From Aureococcus anophagefferens (lineage: Eukaryota > Sar > Pelagophyceae > Pelagomonadales > Pelagomonadaceae): a stretch of DNA of 64,000 nt. The stretch's first letter is position 1, and the number at the start of each line of letters is the position of its first letter. The stretch is from positions 1,298,744 to 1,362,743 of the forward strand of contig NW_008705566.1 of NCBI RefSeq assembly GCF_000186865.1, written 5' to 3'. Of this stretch, positions 36,231-50,120 are shown in pieces. Below the pieces are notes generated by a model. The model worked only from the letters and a program-made list of their open reading frames with translations. It made no database searches and was not told the origin of the DNA. Position numbers and translations under genes: made by a program.

Positions 36231-36810
36231 CGTGGTGGTTTCGGACCTGGGTTATTGTTCTTTTGCGGCGCTTTAGGTGATAGAGAGCACCGCTGCAGAC
36301 GCTGGAGCCGCGCGGCGGCGGTGGAGGCGGCGCTGAGGTACGAGAACTCGAGCTCTCGATGTGGAAACTTGTTCAAGTTCTCAAGTGGATCGCGCGCCAG
36401 GGACGTCGGCACGCCTAGTACCGGCTCCCTTTTAGATCCCCGCGACGCGTTGCGACCTCGTGCCGTCGGGGCCGCGGCGCGCGGCTATCTTGGATGGTAG
36501 CATTTCCCAGCAGCTTGAACCCGGGCCATCTACCAATGTCACGGTCCGACAGAGTCTACATGGCCGCATAAAAGCTAGGTGAGGAGCTCCCGCCAGCGGA
36601 AGACGCGTCGGAAAGTAACCACCCGATCAGCGCAGCCATGTACGCACGTTTTGACGCCTGAATCACCGTGAATCACGTCGGCATTGGCAAGGTAAACGTA
36701 GGGTCAACGACTTCAACCTGTTCCTGTGGCATCCACGAGTTCGGAGCAAAACACGATCTTGATTGTGACGTCCCTGGCGCCGATTGCTTCGGCAGGTGAT
36801 TCCGTCAAAC
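36231..36810. other. 580-bp region without an intact gene
   Basis: Between psbU and the repetitive plastid protein. It holds the two promoters and a remnant of a PAP/fibrillin 3' end (36430-36493). No tRNA, satellite or other structure was recognised. Confidence 0.5.
36430..36493 (-). pseudogene. remnant of PAP/fibrillin gene 3' end
   Basis: From TTTTAGATCCCC to GCCGTCGGG, 36 of 41 bases match 39937 onward, the 3' end of the fibrillin-like gene, including its stop codon. Translated, the fragment ends KIAARRGPDGTRSQRVAGI against QIVARRAPDGARPQRVKGI. Upstream similarity ends abruptly, so this looks like a broken duplicate, although a terminal exon of an unseen gene cannot be excluded. Confidence 0.6.
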
Positions 36811-39800
36811 ATGGTCGGCACGCGGCTCTGCGCGCTCGCCACGGCCGCCGCCGCCTTCAAGACCCCTACGGTGGAGCTCAAGACGACGGCCCTGCGCGCG
36901 ACGTGGCTCGAGGAGCTGAACCAAGAAGCCGTAAAGGCGGGGCCGGCCGGCGCCCCCGTCGCGGCGAACTACGACGATTCCGAGCGCAACGACGTGGAGG
37001 GCGCGGCGCAGGCGGCGCTCGCCGCGCTCCGGTCCGGCGGCCGCAGCATCAGCCAGGCGGCGGAAGAGGCCGCGTGGGAGGCCGCGTGGATCGCCGCGTC
37101 GATCGCGAACCTCGAGCGGCTCAAGCACAATCAGGACGCGGCGGCCCACGTGGCCGTCGACGCCAAGGCGGCCCAGCAGGCGTTGGCCAGCATGGAGCAG
37201 GAGCGCAACGCCAAGGCCGCCCCGGCCAAGGGCAACATGGACCACTTCGCGTCGACGGCGGGCTCGTTCAAGGGCAAGGACCGCGACTTCAAGGCCATGG
37301 GCGCCGCGTCCGGGCCCGACTGGCTCGCGGGCTCCGCCTTCGCCACGGCGACTCCTGCCGCCCCGGCCAAGGCCACACCCTCCGGCAACATGGACCACTT
37401 CGCGTCGACGGCGGGCTCGTTCAAGGGCAAGGACCGCGACTTCAAGGCCGCGGGCGCCGCGTCCGTGCCCGACTGGCTCTCCGGCTCCGCCGCTCCCGCC
37501 GCTGCCCCCGCGGCCGCGGCCGCCCCGGCCAAGGCCGCCAGCGGCAACATGGACCACTTCGCGTCCACCGCGGGCTCGTTCAAGGGCAAGGACCGCGACT
37601 TCAAGGCCATGGGCGCCGCGTCCGTGCCCGACTGGCTCTCCGGCTCCGCCGCCCCCGCGGCCGCCCCCGCGGCCGCGGCCGCCCCGGCCAAGGCCGCCGC
37701 CTCCGGCAACATGGACCACTTCGCGTCGACGGCGGGCGCGTTCAAGGGCAAGGACCGCGACTTCAAGGCCGCGGGCGCCTCGTCCGTGCCCGACTGGCTC
37801 TCCGGCTCCGCCGCTCCGGCGTCCCCCGCGGCCCCGGCGGGCCCCGTCGCCACGGCCGTCCCCGCCGAAGCCGTCGCCGGCGGTTCGTTGACGGCCTCGA
37901 TGGACGCCATGGCTTCCGCTGCCGCCGCGAGCGCTTCCTCCTCCGCGGGCGCCGCTTCCGACTCGCTGACGGCCTCGATGGACGCCATGGCTTCCGCTGC
38001 CGCCGCGAGCGCTTCCTCCTCCTCCGCGCCCGCCGCGTCCGACTCGCTGACGGCCTCGATGGATGCCATGGCTTCCGCTGCCGCCGCGAGCGCTTCCTCA
38101 TCCTCCGCGGGCGCCGCGTCCGACTCGCTGACGGCCTCGATGGACGCCATGGCTCGCGCTGCCGCCGGGAGCGCTTCCTCCTCCTCCGCGGGCTCCTCGT
38201 CTGTGCCCGACTGGCTCTCCAACTCCGCCGCCCCCGCGGCCGCCCCCGCCAAGGCCGCCGCCTCCGGCAACATGGACCACTTCGCCTCGATGGGGGCGCA
38301 AGCGTTCAAGGGCAAGGAGCGCGACTTCAAGGCAATGAGCGCCTCGTCCGGCCCCGACTGGCTCACGGGCTCCGCCTTCGCCGCGGCGTCCCCCGTCGCC
38401 CCGGCCGCGGCGTCCCCCGTCGCCCCGGCCGCCCCGGCCAAGCCCGTCGCCGACGCCATGGCGGAGGCCGCGCTCGAGGTGAAGGCCACGGCGGAAGCGG
38501 TGACCGCGGAAATGTCTGCGCACGAGGCCAAGGCTGCGGCGGTTCTGAAGACCGCGGCGGAACGCCAGCGGCGCGTTCGCGTCGCGCGGCTCCGCCCGAA
38601 GCTGGCCAAGGCTGCGGCGGACGCCAAAATTGAAGCGAACGCCAAGGCTGCGGGCTTCGCGTCCGCGGAGGAGCAAGAAGCGGCCGCGGAAAAGGCTGCG
38701 CACGACGCGAAGCACGCGGCGGTTCTGAAGACCGCGGCGGACCGCCAGCAGCGCATTCGGGCTCGCGAGGAGAAGGCCGCGGCGATCAAGGCTGAAGCGG
38801 ACGCGAAGGCTTTGGCGGCCGCGAAGGCTGCGGGCTTCGCGTCCGCGGAGGAGCAAGAAGCGGCCGCGGAAAAGGCTGCGCACGACGCGAAGCACGCGGC
38901 GGTTCTGAAGTCCGCCGCGGACCGCCAGCGGCGCATTCGCGTCGCGCGTCTCCGCCCGATTGTGGCCAAGGCTGAAGCGGACGCGAAGGCTCTGGCGGCC
39001 GCGAAGGCTGCGGGCTTCGCGTCCGCGGAGGAGCAAGAAGCGGCCGCGGAAAAGGCTGCGCACGACGCGAAGCACGCGGCGGTTCTGAAGTCCGTGGCGG
39101 ACCGCCAGGAGCGCATTCGGGCTCGGGAGGAGAAGGCTGCGGCGAAGTTGCCTTCGGCGGAGGCGCAGGCTGCGGCTGAGGCGGAAGAGGCGGCCGCGGA
39201 AAAGGCTGCGCACGAGGCGAAGCACGCGGCGGTTCTGAAATCCGCGGCGGACCGCCAGCGGCGCATCGCGTCGCGCGGCGGGAAGGCCGCGGCGGAAGCG
39301 GAGGCCGCCCCCGCCGAAGCCGTCGCGGGCGGCTCGTCCGCGCCGTCGTGGCTCACCGCGAAGGACGACGCGGCGCCGCAGGCGTCCCCCGTCGCGCCGG
39401 CCGTCCCCGTCGAAGCCGTCGCCCCGGCGGCCGTCCCCGTCGAAGCCGTCGCCGGCGGCTCGCTGGTGAGCTCGATGGACGCCATGGCTCGCGCTGCCGC
39501 CGCCTCGACCGTCCCCGCCGAGGCCGTCGCCGGCGGCTCGCTCTTGGCCTCGATGGACGCCATGGCTCTCGCCGCCGCCGGGGGCGCCTCCTCCCCCGTC
39601 ACCCCGGACGTCAGCGGGGCCGTCGCCGGCGACTCGCTGCTGGCCTCGATGGACGCCATGGCTCGCGCCGCCGCCGGAGGCGCTTCCTCCTCCTCCGCGC
39701 CCGCCGAGGCCGACTCGCTGCTGGCCTCGATGGACGCTCGCGTCGCCGCCGGGGGCGCTTCCTCCTCCTCCGCGGGCGCCTCGTCCGCGCCGGCCTCGCC

Positions 39801-39912
39801 GTCGCCCGCGAAGCCGCTCGCTCCCTTCCCCTCCCAGCGGAGCGGCCTCGACGTGCTCCGCTTCTCGGTGCTCGCCGCCTTCGGGTTGCTGACCGGAAGT
39901 TACGTCCTGTAA
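36811..39912 (+). CDS. plastid-targeted repetitive scaffold-like protein with PDWL motifs
   Basis: 1033 residues, intronless. The N-terminus (MVGTRLCALATAAAAFKTPT) looks like a heterokont bipartite plastid signal with an AAA|F cleavage motif. Five repeats start GNMDHFAS and carry FKGKDRDFKA and PDWLSGSA, at residues about 141, 192, 245, 299 and 486, joined by Ala/Pro linkers. Residues about 359-470 and 884-994 hold blocks of the type SLTASMDAMA followed by Ser/Ala runs. Residues about 570-830 contain four charged helical repeats of about 60 residues (GFASAEEQEAAAEKAAHD, KHAAVLKTAADRQ), likely coiled coil. The C-terminus (VLRFSVLAAFGLLTGSYVL) is hydrophobic. Multivalent short motifs in disordered linkers suggest a scaffold or condensate protein of the plastid. 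No homologous family recognised. Confidence 0.8.
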   Translation: MVGTRLCALATAAAAFKTPTVELKTTALRATWLEELNQEAVKAGPAGAPVAANYDDSERNDVEGAAQAALAALRSGGRSISQAAEEAAWEAAWIAASIANLERLKHNQDAAAHVAVDAKAAQQALASMEQERNAKAAPAKGNMDHFASTAGSFKGKDRDFKAMGAASGPDWLAGSAFATATPAAPAKATPSGNMDHFASTAGSFKGKDRDFKAAGAASVPDWLSGSAAPAAAPAAAAAPAKAASGNMDHFASTAGSFKGKDRDFKAMGAASVPDWLSGSAAPAAAPAAAAAPAKAAASGNMDHFASTAGAFKGKDRDFKAAGASSVPDWLSGSAAPASPAAPAGPVATAVPAEAVAGGSLTASMDAMASAAAASASSSAGAASDSLTASMDAMASAAAASASSSSAPAASDSLTASMDAMASAAAASASSSSAGAASDSLTASMDAMARAAAGSASSSSAGSSSVPDWLSNSAAPAAAPAKAAASGNMDHFASMGAQAFKGKERDFKAMSASSGPDWLTGSAFAAASPVAPAAASPVAPAAPAKPVADAMAEAALEVKATAEAVTAEMSAHEAKAAAVLKTAAERQRRVRVARLRPKLAKAAADAKIEANAKAAGFASAEEQEAAAEKAAHDAKHAAVLKTAADRQQRIRAREEKAAAIKAEADAKALAAAKAAGFASAEEQEAAAEKAAHDAKHAAVLKSAADRQRRIRVARLRPIVAKAEADAKALAAAKAAGFASAEEQEAAAEKAAHDAKHAAVLKSVADRQERIRAREEKAAAKLPSAEAQAAAEAEEAAAEKAAHEAKHAAVLKSAADRQRRIASRGGKAAAEAEAAPAEAVAGGSSAPSWLTAKDDAAPQASPVAPAVPVEAVAPAAVPVEAVAGGSLVSSMDAMARAAAASTVPAEAVAGGSLLASMDAMALAAAGGASSPVTPDVSGAVAGDSLLASMDAMARAAAGGASSSSAPAEADSLLASMDARVAAGGASSSSAGASSAPASPSPAKPLAPFPSQRSGLDVLRFSVLAAFGLLTGSYVL
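37231..38380 (+). repeat. five in-frame direct repeats (GNMDHFAS unit) in plastid protein
   Basis: Units begin at 37231, 37384, 37543, 37705 and 38266. Each starts GGCAACATGGACCACTTCGC and continues nearly identically through the FKGKDRDFKA codons. Spacing is 51, 53 and 54 codons, then 187 codons where a serine-rich block intervenes. High nucleotide identity implies recent expansion or homogenisation. Confidence 0.9.
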
Positions 39913-39937
39913 GATACTTGCAAGAGACCGCCCTCTT

Positions 39938-40708
39938 TTAGATCCCCTTGACGCGCTGCGGCCTCGCGCCGTCGGGAGCCCTCCGCGCGACGATCTGCGA
40001 GTCGAACGCGGTGAACCGGAAGGCGACCATGTCGTCCTGGAAGTAGTCCACGGGGAACCGCGCGATGCCCTCGAAGAACGACAGGCGCCCGACGTCGCGG
40101 ATGAGCTTGTCGATGACGTTCGACTCCTCGTCCGAGGGCGAGGCGCGCGGCTCCGCCGTGTCGCCCGCGACCCAAAAGTCGTCGAAAATCAGGTCGACCT
40201 CGCCCACCTTGTTCGGCACGGGCAGCATGTAGCCGGACGCCGAGACCCAGCCCTTGAGCGGGCCGACGGCGACGTGGACGTCGCTCACGATGCCGCCGTC
40301 CGCGTCGATGCCGTAGAACGGCCGCACCCGCAACCCCGTGGACGCGACCTTTTCGAAGTGCTCGATGCGCGCCTCCCAGAGGCCCTTCCAGCCCTGCGTC
40401 GACCGCGTGGCCGCGAGCGCCGCGGTGTCCGGCGGCGCGCTCTGCACGATGGGCCGCATCTCGCAGGCGCCGGCGCCGCGATCCCACGCGGCGACGAGCG
40501 GCGACGAGGTCGACAGCGCGGCCGCGGGGGCTGCCAGCGCTGCGGCAAGAGGCAAGGTTTTCGCTACGGTGATGAGTGGCGACTTCGGCGCCACGAGTGC
40601 GGTCGCTTGAGCTGCGATGAGCGCATAGCACAGTGGCGACTTCGGCGCCACGAGCGCGGTCGCTTGAGCTGCGATGAGCGCAAAACACAGGCGCTTCGGA
40701 CGTGCCAT
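39938..40708 (-). CDS. PAP/fibrillin-like thylakoid protein with duplicated targeting segment
   Basis: 256 residues from MARPKRLCFALIAAQATALV. The segment ALIAAQATALVAPKSPL occurs twice in tandem, then a third hydrophobic stretch (LPLAAALAAPAAALS) resembles a thylakoid-lumen signal. The body has GWKGLWEARIEHFEKVASTG, GVGPLKGWV-like and VDLIFDDFWVAG strands, and SFFEGIARFPVDYF, matching the lipocalin-like plastid lipid-associated (fibrillin) family. Those proteins bind lipids or quinones in plastids. The gene is 25 bp from the convergent repetitive plastid gene. Confidence 0.75.
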   Translation of the reverse strand: MARPKRLCFALIAAQATALVAPKSPLCYALIAAQATALVAPKSPLITVAKTLPLAAALAAPAAALSTSSPLVAAWDRGAGACEMRPIVQSAPPDTAALAATRSTQGWKGLWEARIEHFEKVASTGLRVRPFYGIDADGGIVSDVHVAVGPLKGWVSASGYMLPVPNKVGEVDLIFDDFWVAGDTAEPRASPSDEESNVIDKLIRDVGRLSFFEGIARFPVDYFQDDMVAFRFTAFDSQIVARRAPDGARPQRVKGI

Positions 40709-43308: not shown

Positions 43309-44205
43309 ATGCACCTAGCCTCGCTCGCATTCTTACTCACGAGCTGCCTCGGCAGCCAGTACCGGCGCGAGGACCTGCCGCCGTCGTCCGACCTCGCGGC
43401 ACTCAAAAACACGCTCCTAGAAGCGCTCGCACCACCGGTCGACATCATCTGGATCGGCGACAGCACGACGCTGGGACAGATGGAGCTGCTCTGCGACATC
43501 CTGACGGACCGCGTCGACGACCCGTCGTCGGGCGACTGCGAGGGCGGCGGCGTCCGCGTCGTCACCGGAGAGAACTTCGGCGGCGCGCAACGGGCGTGGC
43601 GCATGACCGCCGAGAGCGCGACCGCCTACCTCGACGCCGCGGGCGGCGCCGCCGACGCGCGGCGGATCGTCTATTTCGGGTCGACGCTCCTGCCCGCGAT
43701 GCAGCTCCTGCCGTCGCGGGCCTACGGCGGGTGGCCGGAGCTCAACGTGACGCGGGGCCTCGGCGACGTCGCCGCCGCCGTCCGCTCGAGGCGCGCCTGC
43801 CCCGTGTTCCACACGGTGAACTGGATCTGCGACGCCGCCTTCGTCGACCGCTACGCGCGCGTCGTGCGGTCCGCGACGTCCTACGCGGCCTTCTCTCCCG
43901 GGGGACGCAACAAGCGATCGCTCTACTTGTACTTCGAATCGACGTGCGCGGCGACGCTCGGGCCGGAGCGGGGAAGCGAGGTGCCGCTCTGCGCGCGGCT
44001 ATCGCTCACGTCCTGGGGCTCCGACTTCGCCGCGTCCCTCGAGCGGGCCGCGCTCCGCGCCGCGCGCGGCGTCCCCGTCGTCGACGCGCACGCGATCACG
44101 CGGCGCGCGTGCAACGCGACGAAGGACGGGCGCCACTACACGCCGCGCCTCCCGGCCATGCTCGCCGCGTTCGCCCGCGCCGTCGCGTCGTGTCCACCCA
44201 CTTAG
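43309..44205 (+). CDS. secreted SGNH/PC-esterase-like protein
   Basis: 298 residues. The signal peptide is MHLASLAFLLTSCLGSQ; longer forms have no ATG. The SGNH nucleophile block is VDIIWIGDSTTLGQMELL and the terminal block DGRHYTPRLPAML supplies Asp/His. NVTRGLGDVAAAV and FHTVNWICDAAF lie between. A relative of the TBL-like gene at 30073, probably an esterase or acyltransferase on surface glycans. The stop codon overlaps the stop codon of the farnesyltransferase gene on the other strand by two bases (TTAG). Confidence 0.72.
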   Translation: MHLASLAFLLTSCLGSQYRREDLPPSSDLAALKNTLLEALAPPVDIIWIGDSTTLGQMELLCDILTDRVDDPSSGDCEGGGVRVVTGENFGGAQRAWRMTAESATAYLDAAGGAADARRIVYFGSTLLPAMQLLPSRAYGGWPELNVTRGLGDVAAAVRSRRACPVFHTVNWICDAAFVDRYARVVRSATSYAAFSPGGRNKRSLYLYFESTCAATLGPERGSEVPLCARLSLTSWGSDFAASLERAALRAARGVPVVDAHAITRRACNATKDGRHYTPRLPAMLAAFARAVASCPPT

Positions 44206-45557
44206 GCGCTCGTGAGCTCGGCGTGGGTGTGGGGGAGGCCGGCGAAGAAGGCCGCGGCGCGGGCGACCTTGTCCACGCGAACGTTGAAGACCGGGTGCGT
44301 CTCGTGGAGGAGGTTGCCCGGGTCGCCGTAGACGACAGTGGACGCGTCGTCGCCGTAGAGGCGCTGGCTCGCGGCGAGGCCCGAGAGGCAGTAGCACGTG
44401 TGGTAGTAGTCGCGGTTCTTGCCCGGCTTGTCGCGGAGGCCGCCCTCGGGGTACACCTGCGCGCAGAGGAGGATGTAGCGCTGGAGCGCGCGCTCGTCGC
44501 CGAGCGTCGGGCCCCGGCAACCGTCGAGGTCCAGGTCCAGGTCGAGGTCCAAATCGTCCGCGGGCGGCGGCGGCGCGGGCGGCGGCGCGCGGCCCCCGGG
44601 CCGCCAGACGAGGCCCGGCGGCGCCTCGTCGCTCCGCGTGTGGCCCCTGCGCACGTGCGCGACGAGCGCGAGCGTGCCGCCCTGCCAGAAGCTGTAGCAG
44701 CCGTCCACCAGCTTGTTCGTGCGGCCCTGGAAGCCGCCCTCGACGCGGGTCTGGCGCCGCGCGAGCCACCGCTCCAGCGCGTCGAGGTCGACGGCGTCCG
44801 TCGCGTTCAGGATCACGAGCGCGGCCAGCGCGCAGAAGACGTAGCCGCCGTGGGCCTCGACGCCGGGCTCGCCGCCGAAGCCGCCCTCGTAGGTCTGGCA
44901 GCGCAGCGCGTAGGCCGCCGCGCCCTCGGCGAGCTCCGGCGTCAGCACGTTGAACAGCGCGGCGACGGCCAGCGCCGTGTACGTGCCCCGCACGTCGACC
45001 TCGCCGTCGTCGTGCATGCGGAAGCCGCCGCTCGGGTCCTTCATGGACAGGAGGAAGGCGTACAACCCTTTCCGGTCCACGGACTCGTACGCGCGCCGCG
45101 TGCCGAGCACGGCGATCGCGAGCGACGCCGCGTAGGTCGGCGCGCAGTGCGCGAGCTGCTGCGGCCCGCCGCCGTAGCCGCCCGTCGGGCTCCGGCACTT
45201 GGCCAGCGTCGCGACGCAGTCGTCGATCTTCTCCTCCGGCAGCGCGTCGAGCAGGTCCATGCCGTGTAAAATCCAGTAGCAGAGCCACGGCCGCGACGCG
45301 TCCAACGCGACGTAGGACCCGCCGAGGCCCCCGAGGCCCTTCATGAGGTAGGCGACGTGGCGCTCGCGCATGAGCCGCGGCCGCCGCCGGTCGTCGAGCA
45401 TGCCCGCCGACTCCATGCGCGCCGCCTGCTCGTCGCTGATGCCCTCGAAGTCCATGAGGTACTTGGCGCAGGCGACCTCGCACTCCTCCTGCTCGTAGAG
45501 CGTCAACGACTCGCGCAGGAGCTCGTTCCTGCGGACGCGTTCTTCTTGGGTCGCCAT
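44202..45557 (-). CDS. FNTB: protein farnesyltransferase subunit beta
   Basis: 451 residues from MATQEERVRRNEL; intronless. It shows the prenyltransferase alpha-alpha barrel with ALDASRPWLCYWILHGMDLL typical of FTase beta, the glycine-rich repeats (SPTGGYGGGPQQLAHCAPTY, CQTYEGGFGGEPGVEAHGGY), the zinc ligands Asp and Cys in NKLVDGCYSFWQGG and the zinc His in DYYHTCYCLSGLA. With the alpha subunit (not in the window) it attaches farnesyl to CaaX cysteines. An Asp/Leu repeat (DLDLDLDLDLDG) lies in a surface insertion. The ankyrin protein at 12798 ends in a CaaX box. Confidence 0.94.
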   Translation of the reverse strand: MATQEERVRRNELLRESLTLYEQEECEVACAKYLMDFEGISDEQAARMESAGMLDDRRRPRLMRERHVAYLMKGLGGLGGSYVALDASRPWLCYWILHGMDLLDALPEEKIDDCVATLAKCRSPTGGYGGGPQQLAHCAPTYAASLAIAVLGTRRAYESVDRKGLYAFLLSMKDPSGGFRMHDDGEVDVRGTYTALAVAALFNVLTPELAEGAAAYALRCQTYEGGFGGEPGVEAHGGYVFCALAALVILNATDAVDLDALERWLARRQTRVEGGFQGRTNKLVDGCYSFWQGGTLALVAHVRRGHTRSDEAPPGLVWRPGGRAPPPAPPPPADDLDLDLDLDLDGCRGPTLGDERALQRYILLCAQVYPEGGLRDKPGKNRDYYHTCYCLSGLAASQRLYGDDASTVVYGDPGNLLHETHPVFNVRVDKVARAAAFFAGLPHTHAELTSA

Positions 45558-45662
45558 ATCGATGCGCTCGAGGGCGCCGGCGGCTCTTCGCCGGCCCCAG
45601 ATCCAAGCCTGTGGCAAGCAAACGAGCTGGATACGGCCTGCTCGGTGAATTTCACGTTTGAT

Positions 45663-45688
45663 CAAGGGGATACTTGAAGATCCCCTTG
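45663..45688. promoter_or_regulatory. perfect 9-bp palindrome in divergent promoter
   Basis: CAAGGGGAT and ATCCCCTTG are separated by 8 bp, flanked by a direct TTTGAT. The site lies in the 171 bp between the divergent farnesyltransferase beta and SAM-domain genes. A dimeric factor site or hairpin is possible. Confidence 0.4.
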
Positions 45689-45728
45689 GTTTGATTAACA
45701 CGGCAGCAGCCCGGCGATTTTTCAAGCT

Positions 45729-46591: not shown

Positions 46592-47974
46592 ATGGTGACC
46601 GCGTCGGGCGAGGTGCCGCCGCCGCTGCTCTTCTTCACGTGCCTCGTGTGCACGGGCGTGATGGCGAATTTTACGCTTTTAGTGCCCGTGTCCACCTACT
46701 ACAGCGCGACGCTGCTGGAGAGCGGCGTCATCGTGTCGAGCTACGCGGGCGGCGCCATCGTCTCGCTCTACTTCTGGTCCACCTACGACCGCCGCGCCGT
46801 GCGACCGGCCTACGTGCTGCAGGCCTGCCTCATGTGCGCGGGCAACGGCCTCTTCGCGATCGTCGCCGCCGCGGGGCTGTCCCGCGAGGCGACGTTCTAC
46901 GGTCTCCTACTCGCGCGCTTCGTCGTGGGGCTCGAGGCGGGCTGCATGTACAACGCGAACCTGGCGCTCGTGGGCTACTCGTCGGCGGAGCACCGCGTCA
47001 GGTACCTGGCCATGTACCAGTCGTTCGTGGGCCTCGGCCTCGTGCTCGGGCCCGCGGTCTCGAGCTCGTGCCTCGCCGTGGCGCAGGGCGTCGGGTCGGT
47101 CGTGCTCGAGGAGTCGCTCTCGGCGGCCGTCATGGCCGCCTGGGGGCTCGTCGTCCTCGCGCTCGTGGCGACGCGCCTCCCGGGCGACGCGGACCTCGAG
47201 CGCGAGTACGGCCGCGTCGCCGTGAGCGGCCTCGACGACGTCGCCGCCGCCAAGGCGATCTCGCGCGCGGACCGCGGCCTCCTCAGCGTGCGCCAGGAGC
47301 TGCTCCTGGAGATCTTCCTCGGCAACCTGCTCCGCATCTACCAGCGCCTCGGCTGGGAGGTCGGCGCGGTCGTCGTCCTCGCCGCGAACTACGACTGGGG
47401 CTACGTCGCGGCGGGCTACGCGCTCTCGTCCTTCGGGTTCTTCCAGGCGCTGGGGCAGTACGTCTTCAGCCGCTACTGCAAGGCGAGCCACCCCGTCCGC
47501 GCGCTCCACGTCCTCGAGCTCCTGGAGGCCGCGAGCATCGCCGCCATGTTCACGAAGAGCAACGCGAAGGTCGGGACGGCCCTCGACGCGTCGCTCTGCG
47601 CCGTCTTCCTCGCCGCGTCGCTGCTCTTCTACGTCACGAACTGCCTCACGTCCGCGCCCTTCAACGCGCTCGTCCTCGAGCGCGCCGTCGGCATCGACAA
47701 GGAGGACATGATGCGCGCGTCGCAGTACGGCATCTTCGTCGCGCTCGGCCTCGCGCCAATCGTCGTCCGCGGCGCCATGGACTACCTCGCGTCGGCCAAG
47801 GACCACCAGGACACGCTCGCGGGCATCCTCCTCGTCGGCTGGGGCTTCCAGACGCTCGTGAACAGCGTCCTCACGGGCCGGCGCGGCGCGCCGCCGAAGG
47901 CGGAACCCGACGACGGCGCCCGCCCAGACGGCGAGGGCGCGCCCCTCGTCGCCAAGGGGGGCGGCGCGGTGTAA
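46592..47974 (+). CDS. major facilitator superfamily transporter
   Basis: 460 residues, ATG in context CGCACCATGG. About twelve hydrophobic helices. The first half includes YFWSTYDRRAVRPAYVLQAC (loop 2-3 with RR) and LLARFVVGLEAGCMYNANLA. A charged central loop (PGDADLEREYGRV) separates it from the second half. The C-terminal tail is hydrophilic. It recalls the SPX-MFS/MFSD8-type branch but without an SPX domain. Substrate and membrane unknown. Intronless; 182 bp of intergenic sequence precede it. Confidence 0.8.
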   Translation: MVTASGEVPPPLLFFTCLVCTGVMANFTLLVPVSTYYSATLLESGVIVSSYAGGAIVSLYFWSTYDRRAVRPAYVLQACLMCAGNGLFAIVAAAGLSREATFYGLLLARFVVGLEAGCMYNANLALVGYSSAEHRVRYLAMYQSFVGLGLVLGPAVSSSCLAVAQGVGSVVLEESLSAAVMAAWGLVVLALVATRLPGDADLEREYGRVAVSGLDDVAAAKAISRADRGLLSVRQELLLEIFLGNLLRIYQRLGWEVGAVVVLAANYDWGYVAAGYALSSFGFFQALGQYVFSRYCKASHPVRALHVLELLEAASIAAMFTKSNAKVGTALDASLCAVFLAASLLFYVTNCLTSAPFNALVLERAVGIDKEDMMRASQYGIFVALGLAPIVVRGAMDYLASAKDHQDTLAGILLVGWGFQTLVNSVLTGRRGAPPKAEPDDGARPDGEGAPLVAKGGGAV

Positions 47975-48206: not shown

Positions 48207-50120
48207 ATGTCGAAGCTCGGCGTCTTCGGCTCGGCCCAGGCGACGAGCGACCGCTACCGGCGGCGGCTTTTGGCGGCGGCGGGCCTGAGCAACAACCTGC
48301 TCTTCAGCAACCTGAACACGACGATCACGATCAAGAGCTCGCCGCCGAAGACGGCGCGCGTGACGAGCCAGCTGGGCATCATCAGCGGGAACCTGACGAA
48401 GCGCAACGAGCAGCACTCGTGGCAGCGGCGCTTCTGCGTGCTCGCGCCGCAGAGCCTGCTCTACTACTTCGAGGACGCCGAGGGCGACACGCCGCGGGGC
48501 ATCATCGACCTGGAGTACTACACGGACATCAGCGCCGAGCCGAACAACGTCGTGCGCCTCGCGACGCCGGCCCACGCCGGGCCCCAGCGCACCTTCTACT
48601 TCCAGGCCGACTCCGAGGAGGACATGAACGCGTGGCTCTCGGCGCTCGTCCGCGAGCGCTACTTCGTGCTGCGCGACGAGCGCGACGCGTACCAGGAGCT
48701 CCAGCACGACTTCCAGGCGCAGACGGCGCACATGACGCAGATCATGGGCAAGAGCTCCGAGGACGCGGAGCAGGCCGCGGCGGACTTTGAGCGGACCGCG
48801 CGCGAGGAGTCGGAGCTCGTGGACCAGCTCCAGGCGCTGTTAGCCGACGTCGCGGACCACGCGCCGCCCGAGGCGCCGGCGCCCGACGACGACGCCCCCG
48901 GGGGGTCGCCCGGCGGCCGGAGCTCGGGCCTCGCGGCCGCCGCGGAGCGCCGCGCGTCGCTCGCGCGCCTCGAGGCCGCGGGCGTCGCGCTCGCGACGCG
49001 GGTCGCGTCCCTCGAGGCGACGCTCCTCGAGAGCGAGTCCGGCGCCGCGCGCGAGGCCCAGGAGCTGCGGGAGCACGGCTTCGAGGTCGCGGAGCTCGAG
49101 GCGGAGCTCGCGCGCGAGGAGGCGCTGCTCCGCGACGAGGCGGAGAAGAAGGCCGCGATCCTCGCCGACTGCGACCAGCTCGACCGCGAGGTCGACGAGG
49201 CGCGCATGAACCTGGGCATCATCGCCAAGACGCGCGCGGCCGCGGACGCGCGCGTCGCGGAGTTGAACGACCAGAAGAAGCTCCTCGTGCGCGAGGTCAA
49301 GAACGCGCGCAAGGCCTTCGCCGAGGCGCGCGCGAAGAACTCGGAGCTGTTGAAGCAGGCCATGGACGAGAGCGCCTTCTCCATGTCCGCGTCCGAGGAC
49401 CTCGCCGACGCGGGCGACGACGACGCCTCCGCGGCCGACGCGCCGAGCCCGACGGCCGCGGCGTCCGAGCCGGCGCCCAAGCCCTACCCCTTCGACGCCT
49501 CCGCCGCCGGCGGGCCCAAGGACAAGGCCTCGAGGTCCTTCGCGGCCGCCTTCAAGTCCTTCGTCGCGGACGCGAGCCCGAAAACGGGCAAGAAGGGCAC
49601 GATCGCCAAGGACGCGCAGCTCAGCTCCGACGACGAGGACGCCGCGGCCGAGCCCGCGGCCGACGTTTCGCCGGCGCCGGCGCCCGACGCGCCGGACTTC
49701 GTGCTCCGGTGCCGCCGCTGCAAGGGCACCGTCGAGGGCCCGCGGAACTCGACGTGCACGTGCGCCGTGCCCCTCGTCGGCGACGACCCCAAGGCGCCCT
49801 CGGTGAAGGACGCCGCCGACGCCGCGCGCCTCGAGGCCCAGCGCGTCTGGAAGTCCTTCTCGGGCATGTCCGCGAAGTCGTTCTTCGGGTCGTCGTCGCC
49901 CAAGGGCCCCGCGAAGGTGCCCGCGCCGCCGCCGCCGCCCGAGGAGACCAAGGTCGAGGCGCCGCCGCCGGCGCCCGAGCCGCCGGCGCTCCCCGAGGAG
50001 GAGTTCGTCTTCACGCCGCTCAAGTACCACGGCGACGACGACCTCCCCACGATCGCCAAGGACCCGCCGGACCAGGTCGAGCTCGAGGCCGACGACGCGC
50101 CGGACCTGACGAGCCTCTAG
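48207..50120 (+). CDS. PH-domain / coiled-coil / zinc-ribbon protein
   Basis: 637 residues, MSKLGVFGSAQ. Residues about 50-150 form a pleckstrin-homology domain: SGNLTKRNEQHSWQRRFCVL, SLLYYFEDAEGD and the C-terminal helix EEDMNAWLSALV with its Trp. Residues about 160-390 are a long coiled coil. A small zinc-binding motif is in LRCRRCKGTVEGP...CTC. The rest is Pro/Ala/Asp-rich. Likely a membrane- or phosphoinositide-associated scaffold. Intronless. Confidence 0.82.
   Translation: MSKLGVFGSAQATSDRYRRRLLAAAGLSNNLLFSNLNTTITIKSSPPKTARVTSQLGIISGNLTKRNEQHSWQRRFCVLAPQSLLYYFEDAEGDTPRGIIDLEYYTDISAEPNNVVRLATPAHAGPQRTFYFQADSEEDMNAWLSALVRERYFVLRDERDAYQELQHDFQAQTAHMTQIMGKSSEDAEQAAADFERTAREESELVDQLQALLADVADHAPPEAPAPDDDAPGGSPGGRSSGLAAAAERRASLARLEAAGVALATRVASLEATLLESESGAAREAQELREHGFEVAELEAELAREEALLRDEAEKKAAILADCDQLDREVDEARMNLGIIAKTRAAADARVAELNDQKKLLVREVKNARKAFAEARAKNSELLKQAMDESAFSMSASEDLADAGDDDASAADAPSPTAAASEPAPKPYPFDASAAGGPKDKASRSFAAAFKSFVADASPKTGKKGTIAKDAQLSSDDEDAAAEPAADVSPAPAPDAPDFVLRCRRCKGTVEGPRNSTCTCAVPLVGDDPKAPSVKDAADAARLEAQRVWKSFSGMSAKSFFGSSSPKGPAKVPAPPPPPEETKVEAPPPAPEPPALPEEEFVFTPLKYHGDDDLPTIAKDPPDQVELEADDAPDLTSL

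What the first reader, a model, noticed from the sequence alone, without database searches (positions are those of the whole stretch)
36811..39912. Plastid-targeted multivalent repeat protein, a candidate pyrenoid or thylakoid scaffold
A bipartite plastid-type N-terminus, five GNMDHFAS-FKGKDRDFKA-PDWL repeats spaced about 50 residues apart in Ala/Pro linkers, seven [D/S]WL motifs in all, a charged coiled coil and a C-terminal hydrophobic tail. This layout (short sticky motif with Lys/Arg and Trp repeated along a disordered chain) parallels Rubisco linker proteins such as EPYC1 and PYCO1, which are unrelated in sequence to each other. Pelagophytes have pyrenoids, so an analogous linker is expected but I know of none described. 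Function is inference.
Basis: inference. Interest (0 to 1): 0.8.

Follow-up and report, generated by a model that had tools for sequence, protein, structure and literature searches.

The report
Plastid multi-sticker scaffold protein, Aureococcus
A brown-tide alga carries a family of probably chloroplast-bound proteins built from repeated sticky motifs, which may glue together the carbon-fixing compartment of the cell, although binding to its key enzyme has not been shown.

Summary
All 9 relatives of the first search are named Aureococcus anophagefferens.

The protein is one of at least 18 ORFs in this genome that share modules; 13 share the presequence by eye. One paralog has 15 stickers; one ORF joins modules to a methyltransferase. 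Two divergent environmental relatives keep presequence and sticker (P0034: 77% identical in the sticker, 38% outside).

Plastid import is well supported. A multivalent scaffold is the best reading. A Rubisco/pyrenoid role is plausible but untested. Against it: pI about 6, a membrane-like tail, no predicted sticker fold, no PYCO1 motif, sticker likeness between paralogs that extends to silent sites, and only 1 true linker among 13 architecture hits in Chlorella. I read this copy as a possible matrix-to-membrane tether; the paralog at C9:788-791 kb is the better linker candidate.

The parts
36811..39912 (+). Single open frame, 1033 aa, whole protein
   Evidence: frame supported by codon-position GC and by paralogs with a similar start
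36811..36858 (+). Signal-peptide-like segment ending in AAF (residues 1-16)
   Evidence: same layout in LHC controls of the same genome
36859..36900 (+). Transit-peptide-like segment (about residues 17-30), with TTALR near its end
   Evidence: an ALR-type ending recurs in the family and in one LHC control (L084)
37057..37125 (+). AAWEAAW helical module (residues 83-105), shared across much of the family
   Evidence: alignment; helix 82-136, block pLDDT 61-78; amplified in a paralog
37231..37326 (+). Sticker 1, GNMDHFAS..FKGKDRDFK..PDWL
37384..37479 (+). Sticker 2
37543..37638 (+). Sticker 3
37705..37800 (+). Sticker 4
37882..38148 (+). Four SMDA repeats (period about 81 nt)
38194..38217 (+). 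Lone WL box (SSSVPDWL)
38266..38364 (+). Sticker 5, diverged (FKGKERDFK)
38485..39294 (+). Five charged Ala-rich repeats of mostly 60 residues (coil-like), related to a stretch of the paralog at C6:1394-1395 kb
   Evidence: (family D5)
39334..39354 (+). Lone WL box (SSAPSWL)
39457..39738 (+). Second set of four SMDA repeats
39853..39909 (+). C-terminal hydrophobic segment VLRFSVLAAFGLLTGSYVL, possible membrane anchor
   Evidence: KD 1.68; only this locus at E<=0.1

Best explanation
The gene encodes a nuclear-encoded protein that is imported into the plastid stroma and works as a multivalent scaffold. Its short stickers (MDHFAS...FKGK...P[DE]WL), strung on Ala/Pro linkers, bind a repeated surface on an abundant partner. 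The charged repeats act as a spacer, and the hydrophobic C-terminus ties the network to a plastid membrane. The most likely partner is Form ID Rubisco, so the family would build and anchor the pyrenoid matrix. In this reading paralogs without a tail (above all C9:788-791 kb, 15 stickers) are the linkers and the window copy is a matrix-to-thylakoid tether. Shown by tools: the repeats, the family, the shared presequence layout and the recurring sticker core. Inferred: import into the stroma (about 0.9), scaffold action (about 0.7), Rubisco/pyrenoid as the site (about 0.4), membrane tether role of this copy (about 0.3).
For: Presequence: 13 of 18 family ORFs read by eye have a short hydrophobic start ending in [AQ][AG]F with a Pro soon after. 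A hand-made rule passes 11 of these 18, 7 of 9 LHC controls and 4 of 363 window frames, this gene included. The conserved F at the cleavage site is the published mark of heterokont plastid import (PMC2567999, passages). Multivalency: 5 stickers here, 15 and 8 in paralogs at 49-55 residue spacing, within the 20-120 residues given for Rubisco cross-linking (PMC11570498, section 6). Recurrence: of 52 distinct MDHF-type units in the window gene and 7 paralogs, 47 have the F-x-G-K core, 42 P[DES]W[LM] and 41 both. Of two divergent environmental relatives, P0034 matches window sticker 1 in 23 of 30 positions against 59 of 154 aligned positions outside the stickers. Disorder: block pLDDT 40-47 for residues 141-230. 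Family modules also sit on other proteins, for example before a methyltransferase domain, which recalls the sticker variants in other Chlamydomonas pyrenoid proteins (PMC10288592 discussion). A. anophagefferens has a pyrenoid (PMC10720644 figure legend).
Against: pI 6.06 and NCPR -0.009 for the window protein, whereas PYCO1 has pI 10.03. Stickers have no predicted structure, whereas FLIPPer looks for repeating structured elements. The hydrophobic tail is atypical of a soluble linker. Architecture alone is a poor predictor: 13 FLIPPer hits in Chlorella, 1 true linker. Within the window gene four equal-length stickers give pN/pS 0.82 (6 pairs; the fifth copy was left out by length). Between genes sticker pN/pS is 0.17-0.69, much as in linkers (0.38-0.74), and stickers are also more alike than linkers at silent sites (for example pS 0.11 against 0.26, window versus C9_790), so likeness between paralogs may partly be DNA-level homogenisation. 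No expression, localisation or binding data. One paralog is strongly acidic (pI 4.84). The methyltransferase ORF fails the presequence rule.
Confidence: 0.4

Rival explanations
1. A plastid scaffold of another kind: the family clusters plastid enzymes or organises thylakoids, plastoglobules or nucleoids, and Rubisco is not the partner.
For: Modules occur beside domains that are not carbon-fixation enzymes: a Methyltransf_11 domain and a weak thioesterase-like C-terminus (below the Pfam cut-off); neither of these two ORFs passes my presequence rule. The window copy has a membrane-like tail. Charge varies widely in the family, pI 4.05 to 11.4.
Against: Sticker number, spacing and low pLDDT fit a linker. 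The organism has a pyrenoid, and my searches listed no Rubisco linker for pelagophytes.
Confidence: 0.35
2. A lineage-specific, fast-evolving low-complexity protein in which the tandem copies spread by unequal crossing-over and gene conversion, with little specific function beyond filling or crowding.
For: Copies in one gene are recent: pS 0.05 between four window stickers, pN/pS 0.82; between genes stickers are alike at silent sites too. Family loci lie in clusters on C6, C9, C15 and C21.
Against: A divergent environmental relative keeps 23 of 30 sticker residues but 59 of 154 residues outside; the sticker core recurs in 41 of 52 units over diverged paralogs; the presequence layout is kept in 13 of 18 ORFs.
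Confidence: 0.15
3. A secreted, Ala/Pro-rich glycocalyx or cell-coat protein (arabinogalactan-like), the N-terminus being a plain signal peptide.
For: Ala/Pro-rich linkers; A. anophagefferens has an exopolysaccharide layer of little-known content (PMC10720644 passage). Some database entries of the family are named procollagen-proline 4-dioxygenase, though no such domain was found in them.
Against: The AAF..P and acid-poor segment resembles LHC presequences of the same genome. One ORF joins family modules to a methyltransferase domain.
Confidence: 0.07

Closest known systems
PYCO1 of Phaeodactylum tricornutum (Rubisco linker of a red-type pyrenoid)
   Same: Plastid presequence, mostly disordered, tandem repeats with Trp-bearing short motifs, lineage-restricted (PMC10288592, results and discussion sections).
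   Different: No KWSP or GTGYNP in any of the 18 family ORFs; pI 6.06 against 10.03; only 2 Tyr in the mature part; extra charged repeats and a hydrophobic tail. A faint likeness between its large-subunit motifs (AAEWGSMNQ, ASEWASMNT) and the family's PEWLSGS/TPEWMSQ is a lead only; the pattern EW[GA]SMN itself is absent.
EPYC1 (Chlamydomonas) and CsLinker (Chlorella)
   Same: Multivalent disordered repeat protein with spaced stickers, 20-120 residues apart (PMC11570498, section 6).
   Different: EPYC1 stickers are helical (PMC10288592 discussion) and CsLinker is a structural analogue; the window's stickers are not predicted to fold. Neither protein appeared among the relatives found; neither was compared directly.
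Chlamydomonas proteins that join the pyrenoid matrix to membranes or starch (RBMP1/2, MITH1, SAGA1/2)
   Same: Possible combination of matrix-binding motifs with a membrane-facing part (named in PMC13159521 passages).
   Different: No sequence comparison was made; the tail here is a single short C-terminal segment.
PPAP28 of Amorphochlora (candidate species-specific pyrenoid linker)
   Same: A lineage-restricted candidate without homologs elsewhere (PMC13159521 passage).

Membership tests
Rubisco linker (EPYC1/PYCO1/CsLinker functional class) | Plastid targeting | tested here: met
   sequence-based only, no trained predictor
Rubisco linker (EPYC1/PYCO1/CsLinker functional class) | Three or more repeats spaced 20-120 residues | tested here: met
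   spacing 51/53/54 for four stickers, the fifth 187 further on
Rubisco linker (EPYC1/PYCO1/CsLinker functional class) | Largely disordered chain | tested here: inconclusive
   126 of 230 modelled residues below pLDDT 50; the remaining 803 residues were not modelled and include charged repeats that may be helical
Rubisco linker (EPYC1/PYCO1/CsLinker functional class) | Repeats contain structured (helical) elements | tested here: not met
   no secondary structure in the 52-residue sticker model, only 3-residue helices in the larger one; both models are of low confidence
Rubisco linker (EPYC1/PYCO1/CsLinker functional class) | Basic protein (PYCO1 pI 10.03) | tested here: not met
   window pI 6.06; basic among paralogs are C9_790 (9.06), C6_54 (9.53), C6_1278 (11.41), C6_1395 (10.43)
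Rubisco linker (EPYC1/PYCO1/CsLinker functional class) | Binds Rubisco and phase-separates with it | not testable with these tools
   needs protein
PYCO1 family by sequence | KWSP and GTGYNP motifs | tested here: not met
   0 of 18 family ORFs
Heterokont plastid-imported protein | Signal peptide, conserved F at cleavage site, acid-poor transit peptide | tested here: met
   definition from PMC2567999 passages
Pyrenoid membrane tether | Membrane segment plus Rubisco-binding motif | tested here: inconclusive
   19-residue hydrophobic C-terminus, KD 1.68; binding motif unproven

The most novel reading that the evidence does not exclude
Pelagophytes organise a plastid condensate, most likely the pyrenoid, with a modular sticker code. 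At least 18 ORFs share a small set of modules (AAW helix, YVPPLGG box, MDHFAS-FKGK-WL sticker, RR-AWL box) in different copy numbers, on linkers, a membrane tether and enzymes, whereas the linkers that I read about (PYCO1 with a short isoform, CsLinker, EPYC1) are reported as single proteins.
Probability: 0.25. Interest if true: 0.85.

Novelty: new variant of a known kind. Interest (0 to 1): 0.62.

Why it matters
Pyrenoid linkers share so little sequence between lineages that each lineage's must be found anew (PMC11570498 section 6), and my open-access searches listed none for pelagophytes. Pelagophytes include brown-tide algae, and Pelagomonas, called among the most numerous eukaryotes (start of abstract of PMC13284251 in the listing); that paper does not mention a pyrenoid. 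A defined gene family with a 30-residue sticker makes the question directly testable with one peptide-binding assay. If enzymes carry the same modules, the set would also show how clients are addressed to a plastid condensate.

Tried and rejected
No family was found for the window protein in Pfam, the PDB or NCBIfam; a 51-residue sticker query gave one chance-level PDB match (E 3.1). Scans of viral contigs and of prokaryote genomes with a family alignment confirmed no relative (261 and 301 pattern matches, none confirmed). A pN/pS test on stickers gave no clear sign of protein-level selection and is reported as evidence against. Rubisco large subunit was searched in the assembly and not found, as expected if it is plastid-encoded, so the sticker could not be compared with its partner. 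An antisense ORF of 842 aa (37131-39659) was rejected: its codon-position GC pattern (0.64/0.72/0.90) differs from that of the sense frame, and paralogs support the sense frame. A query with a WGNSVVPRNEP box found it only at two family loci, C15 and C21, and led no further. A direct PYCO1 homolog was rejected on motifs.
Full report
OBSERVATION. The window is C6:1298744-1362743 of a 49.05-Mb, 86-contig assembly. All 9 proteins of the first relative search are named Aureococcus anophagefferens, and 75 matches to the LHC family fit a phototroph. The ORF 36811-39912 encodes 1033 aa. It carries five stickers at residues 141, 192, 245, 299 and 486, seven [D/S]WL motifs, eight SMDA repeats, five AAVLK-bearing charged repeats and a hydrophobic last 19 residues. 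The repeats are far beyond chance: the longest exact repeated peptide is 42 aa, against at most 10 in 200 shuffles.

FAMILY. A two-sticker query matched 57 places in the genome at E<=0.001. They fall on this gene, a cluster at C9:788-795 kb, and C9:1490 kb, C4:2245 kb, C6:49-55 kb, C6:1279-1282 kb and C6:1391-1394 kb. An N-terminal query gave 27 matches at E<=0.01 and added C15, C21, C1, C7, C28, C8 and C9:787 kb. From these I set out 18 ORFs; some are cut by the fetched stretch, and two lack a visible presequence start (C9_1491, C6_54). A further copy at C9:792-793 kb holds unknown bases and was left out of the 18. Shared modules are the AAWEAAW helix, a YVPPLGG box (21 matches at E<=1, the last, C1:2292 kb at E 0.1, outside the family), the MDHFAS-FKGK-WL sticker and an RR-AWL box (33 matches at E<=1, the last, on C2 with a stop, likely chance). 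Not every ORF has every module. Copy numbers vary: by one pattern C9_790 has 15 full stickers, C9_795 has 8, and C9_1491 and C4 have 3 each. The ORF at C9:779-787 kb has 25 AAW motifs, with eleven successive spacings of 60 residues. The charged repeats of the window protein match only C6:1394-1395 kb at E<=1, and its tail no other locus at E<=0.1.

TARGETING. Of the 18 ORFs, 13 by eye begin with a short hydrophobic segment ending in AAF or QGF, followed by a Pro-bearing, acid-poor stretch that often ends in ALR. Ten of 12 LHC upstream stretches show the same layout, with F in six, W in one and L in three; the other two have no visible start. A hand-made rule passes 11 of 18 family ORFs, 7 of 9 LHC N-termini and 4 of 363 window frames, this gene included. 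The seven ORFs that fail are C9_1491 and C6_54 (no visible start), C15_4815p and C21_2383 (alike by eye), and the methyltransferase, C28 and C8 ORFs. The conserved F is the published mark of heterokont plastid import (PMC2567999, passages). I take import into the plastid as likely, about 0.9, for the window protein.

CONSERVATION. A third protein search with an alignment of ten paralogs found 27 proteins, 20 from ENA or JGI sets; I read 18 of them. Most look like near copies of A. anophagefferens genes. P0033 and P0034 are divergent: 43% identical to window residues 1-230. They keep presequence, AAW helix, YVPPLGG box and sticker. P0034 matches window sticker 1 in 23 of 30 positions, and 59 of 154 aligned positions outside the stickers. 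Their species is unknown. Among 52 distinct MDHF-type units of the window gene and 7 paralogs, 47 have the F-x-G-K core, 42 P[DES]W[LM] and 41 both. On 33 selected rows eight positions are invariant, a figure that leans high because 12 diverged units were left out. Against a simple reading of selection, stickers between genes show pN/pS 0.17-0.69, much like linkers (0.38-0.74), and low silent divergence (pS 0.06-0.16, linkers 0.08-0.45), which points to homogenisation or recent exchange between the genes. No relatives were confirmed in viral or prokaryote contigs.

STRUCTURE. AlphaFold2 on residues 1-230 (20-row alignment) has mean pLDDT 53.6. Its better part is the helices 56-75 and 82-136 (ten-residue means 54-78); residues 141-230 stay at 40-47. 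A sticker alone with 33 rows gives pLDDT 61 and no secondary structure. Both models are weak.

FUNCTION. What it works like: a multivalent scaffold. The organism has a pyrenoid (figure legend in PMC10720644), other pelagophytes have pyrenoids (PMC12168098 passages), and the spacing suits Rubisco cross-linking (PMC11570498 section 6). Whether it is a Rubisco linker: two usual features were tested and not met by this copy, basic charge and structured repeats, and binding could not be tested. The base rate is sobering, one true linker among 13 candidates in Chlorella. The tail makes a tether role more natural for this copy than a soluble linker role; a coding end in a further exon cannot be excluded, as no transcript was seen. 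The better linker candidate is C9_790 (15 stickers, pI about 9.1). PYCO1's large-subunit motifs (AAEWGSMNQ, ASEWASMNT) loosely resemble PEWLSGS and TPEWMSQ of the family; this is a few residues and not a test.

NOVELTY. Open-access searches aimed at a pelagophyte linker or scaffold gave 0, 21, 0, 6, 0 and 36 papers (30 shown). By title and abstract start none of those shown reports one; of these I opened passages of three (PMC10720644, PMC12168098, PMC13284251). Searches on FLIPPer, PYCO1 and linkers since 2024 gave 1, 4 and 14 papers (12 shown). Most subscription papers are not held. The kind (lineage-specific plastid repeat scaffold) is known; a multi-gene modular set would be a new variant.

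Noticed in passing
L033:1432-2751 (C1:226.8 kb): AAW-helix and YVPP-like modules before a Methyltransf_11 domain (E 1.4e-19); the N-terminus is presequence-like but fails the rule. Nine of the 27 proteins are listed with methyltransferase domains.
   Followed up: partly
L026:779-7690 (-) (C6:1389-1396 kb): A 2304-aa paralog, pI 10.4, with 24 YG dipeptides, many in SYGQ-like low-complexity stretches, besides five MDHF-type motifs; by eye these resemble prion-like domains.
   Followed up: partly
L088 (C9:779-787 kb): A 2596-aa acidic paralog (pI 4.84) with 25 AAW motifs, part of them in a 60-residue array, a possible counterpart of the basic paralogs.
   Followed up: partly
L045/L046 (C28:303-305 kb): A 1121-aa open frame with PPLGG-like and RR-AWL repeats and a weak thioesterase-like C-terminus (4HBT_2, E 6.8e-4, below cut-off).
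   Followed up: partly
36424-36490 and 39930-39996: A 67-nt direct repeat (79% identical) flanks the gene on both sides, perhaps the trace of a duplication of a neighbouring minus-strand gene end.
   Followed up: no
44205-45725 (-), 46592-47971 (+), 48207-50117 (+): Neighbouring genes: a prenyltransferase alpha-alpha toroid protein (E 1.4e-103), an MFS transporter and a PH-domain protein.
   Followed up: no
P0002-P0010 (other A. anophagefferens records): Database entries of this family are named procollagen-proline 4-dioxygenase, ATPase or ubiquitin binding protein and seem to contain frame slips in the repeats (by eye). No dioxygenase or ATPase domain was found in them; two have an N-terminal Thioredoxin_7 match, perhaps fused gene models.
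   Followed up: partly
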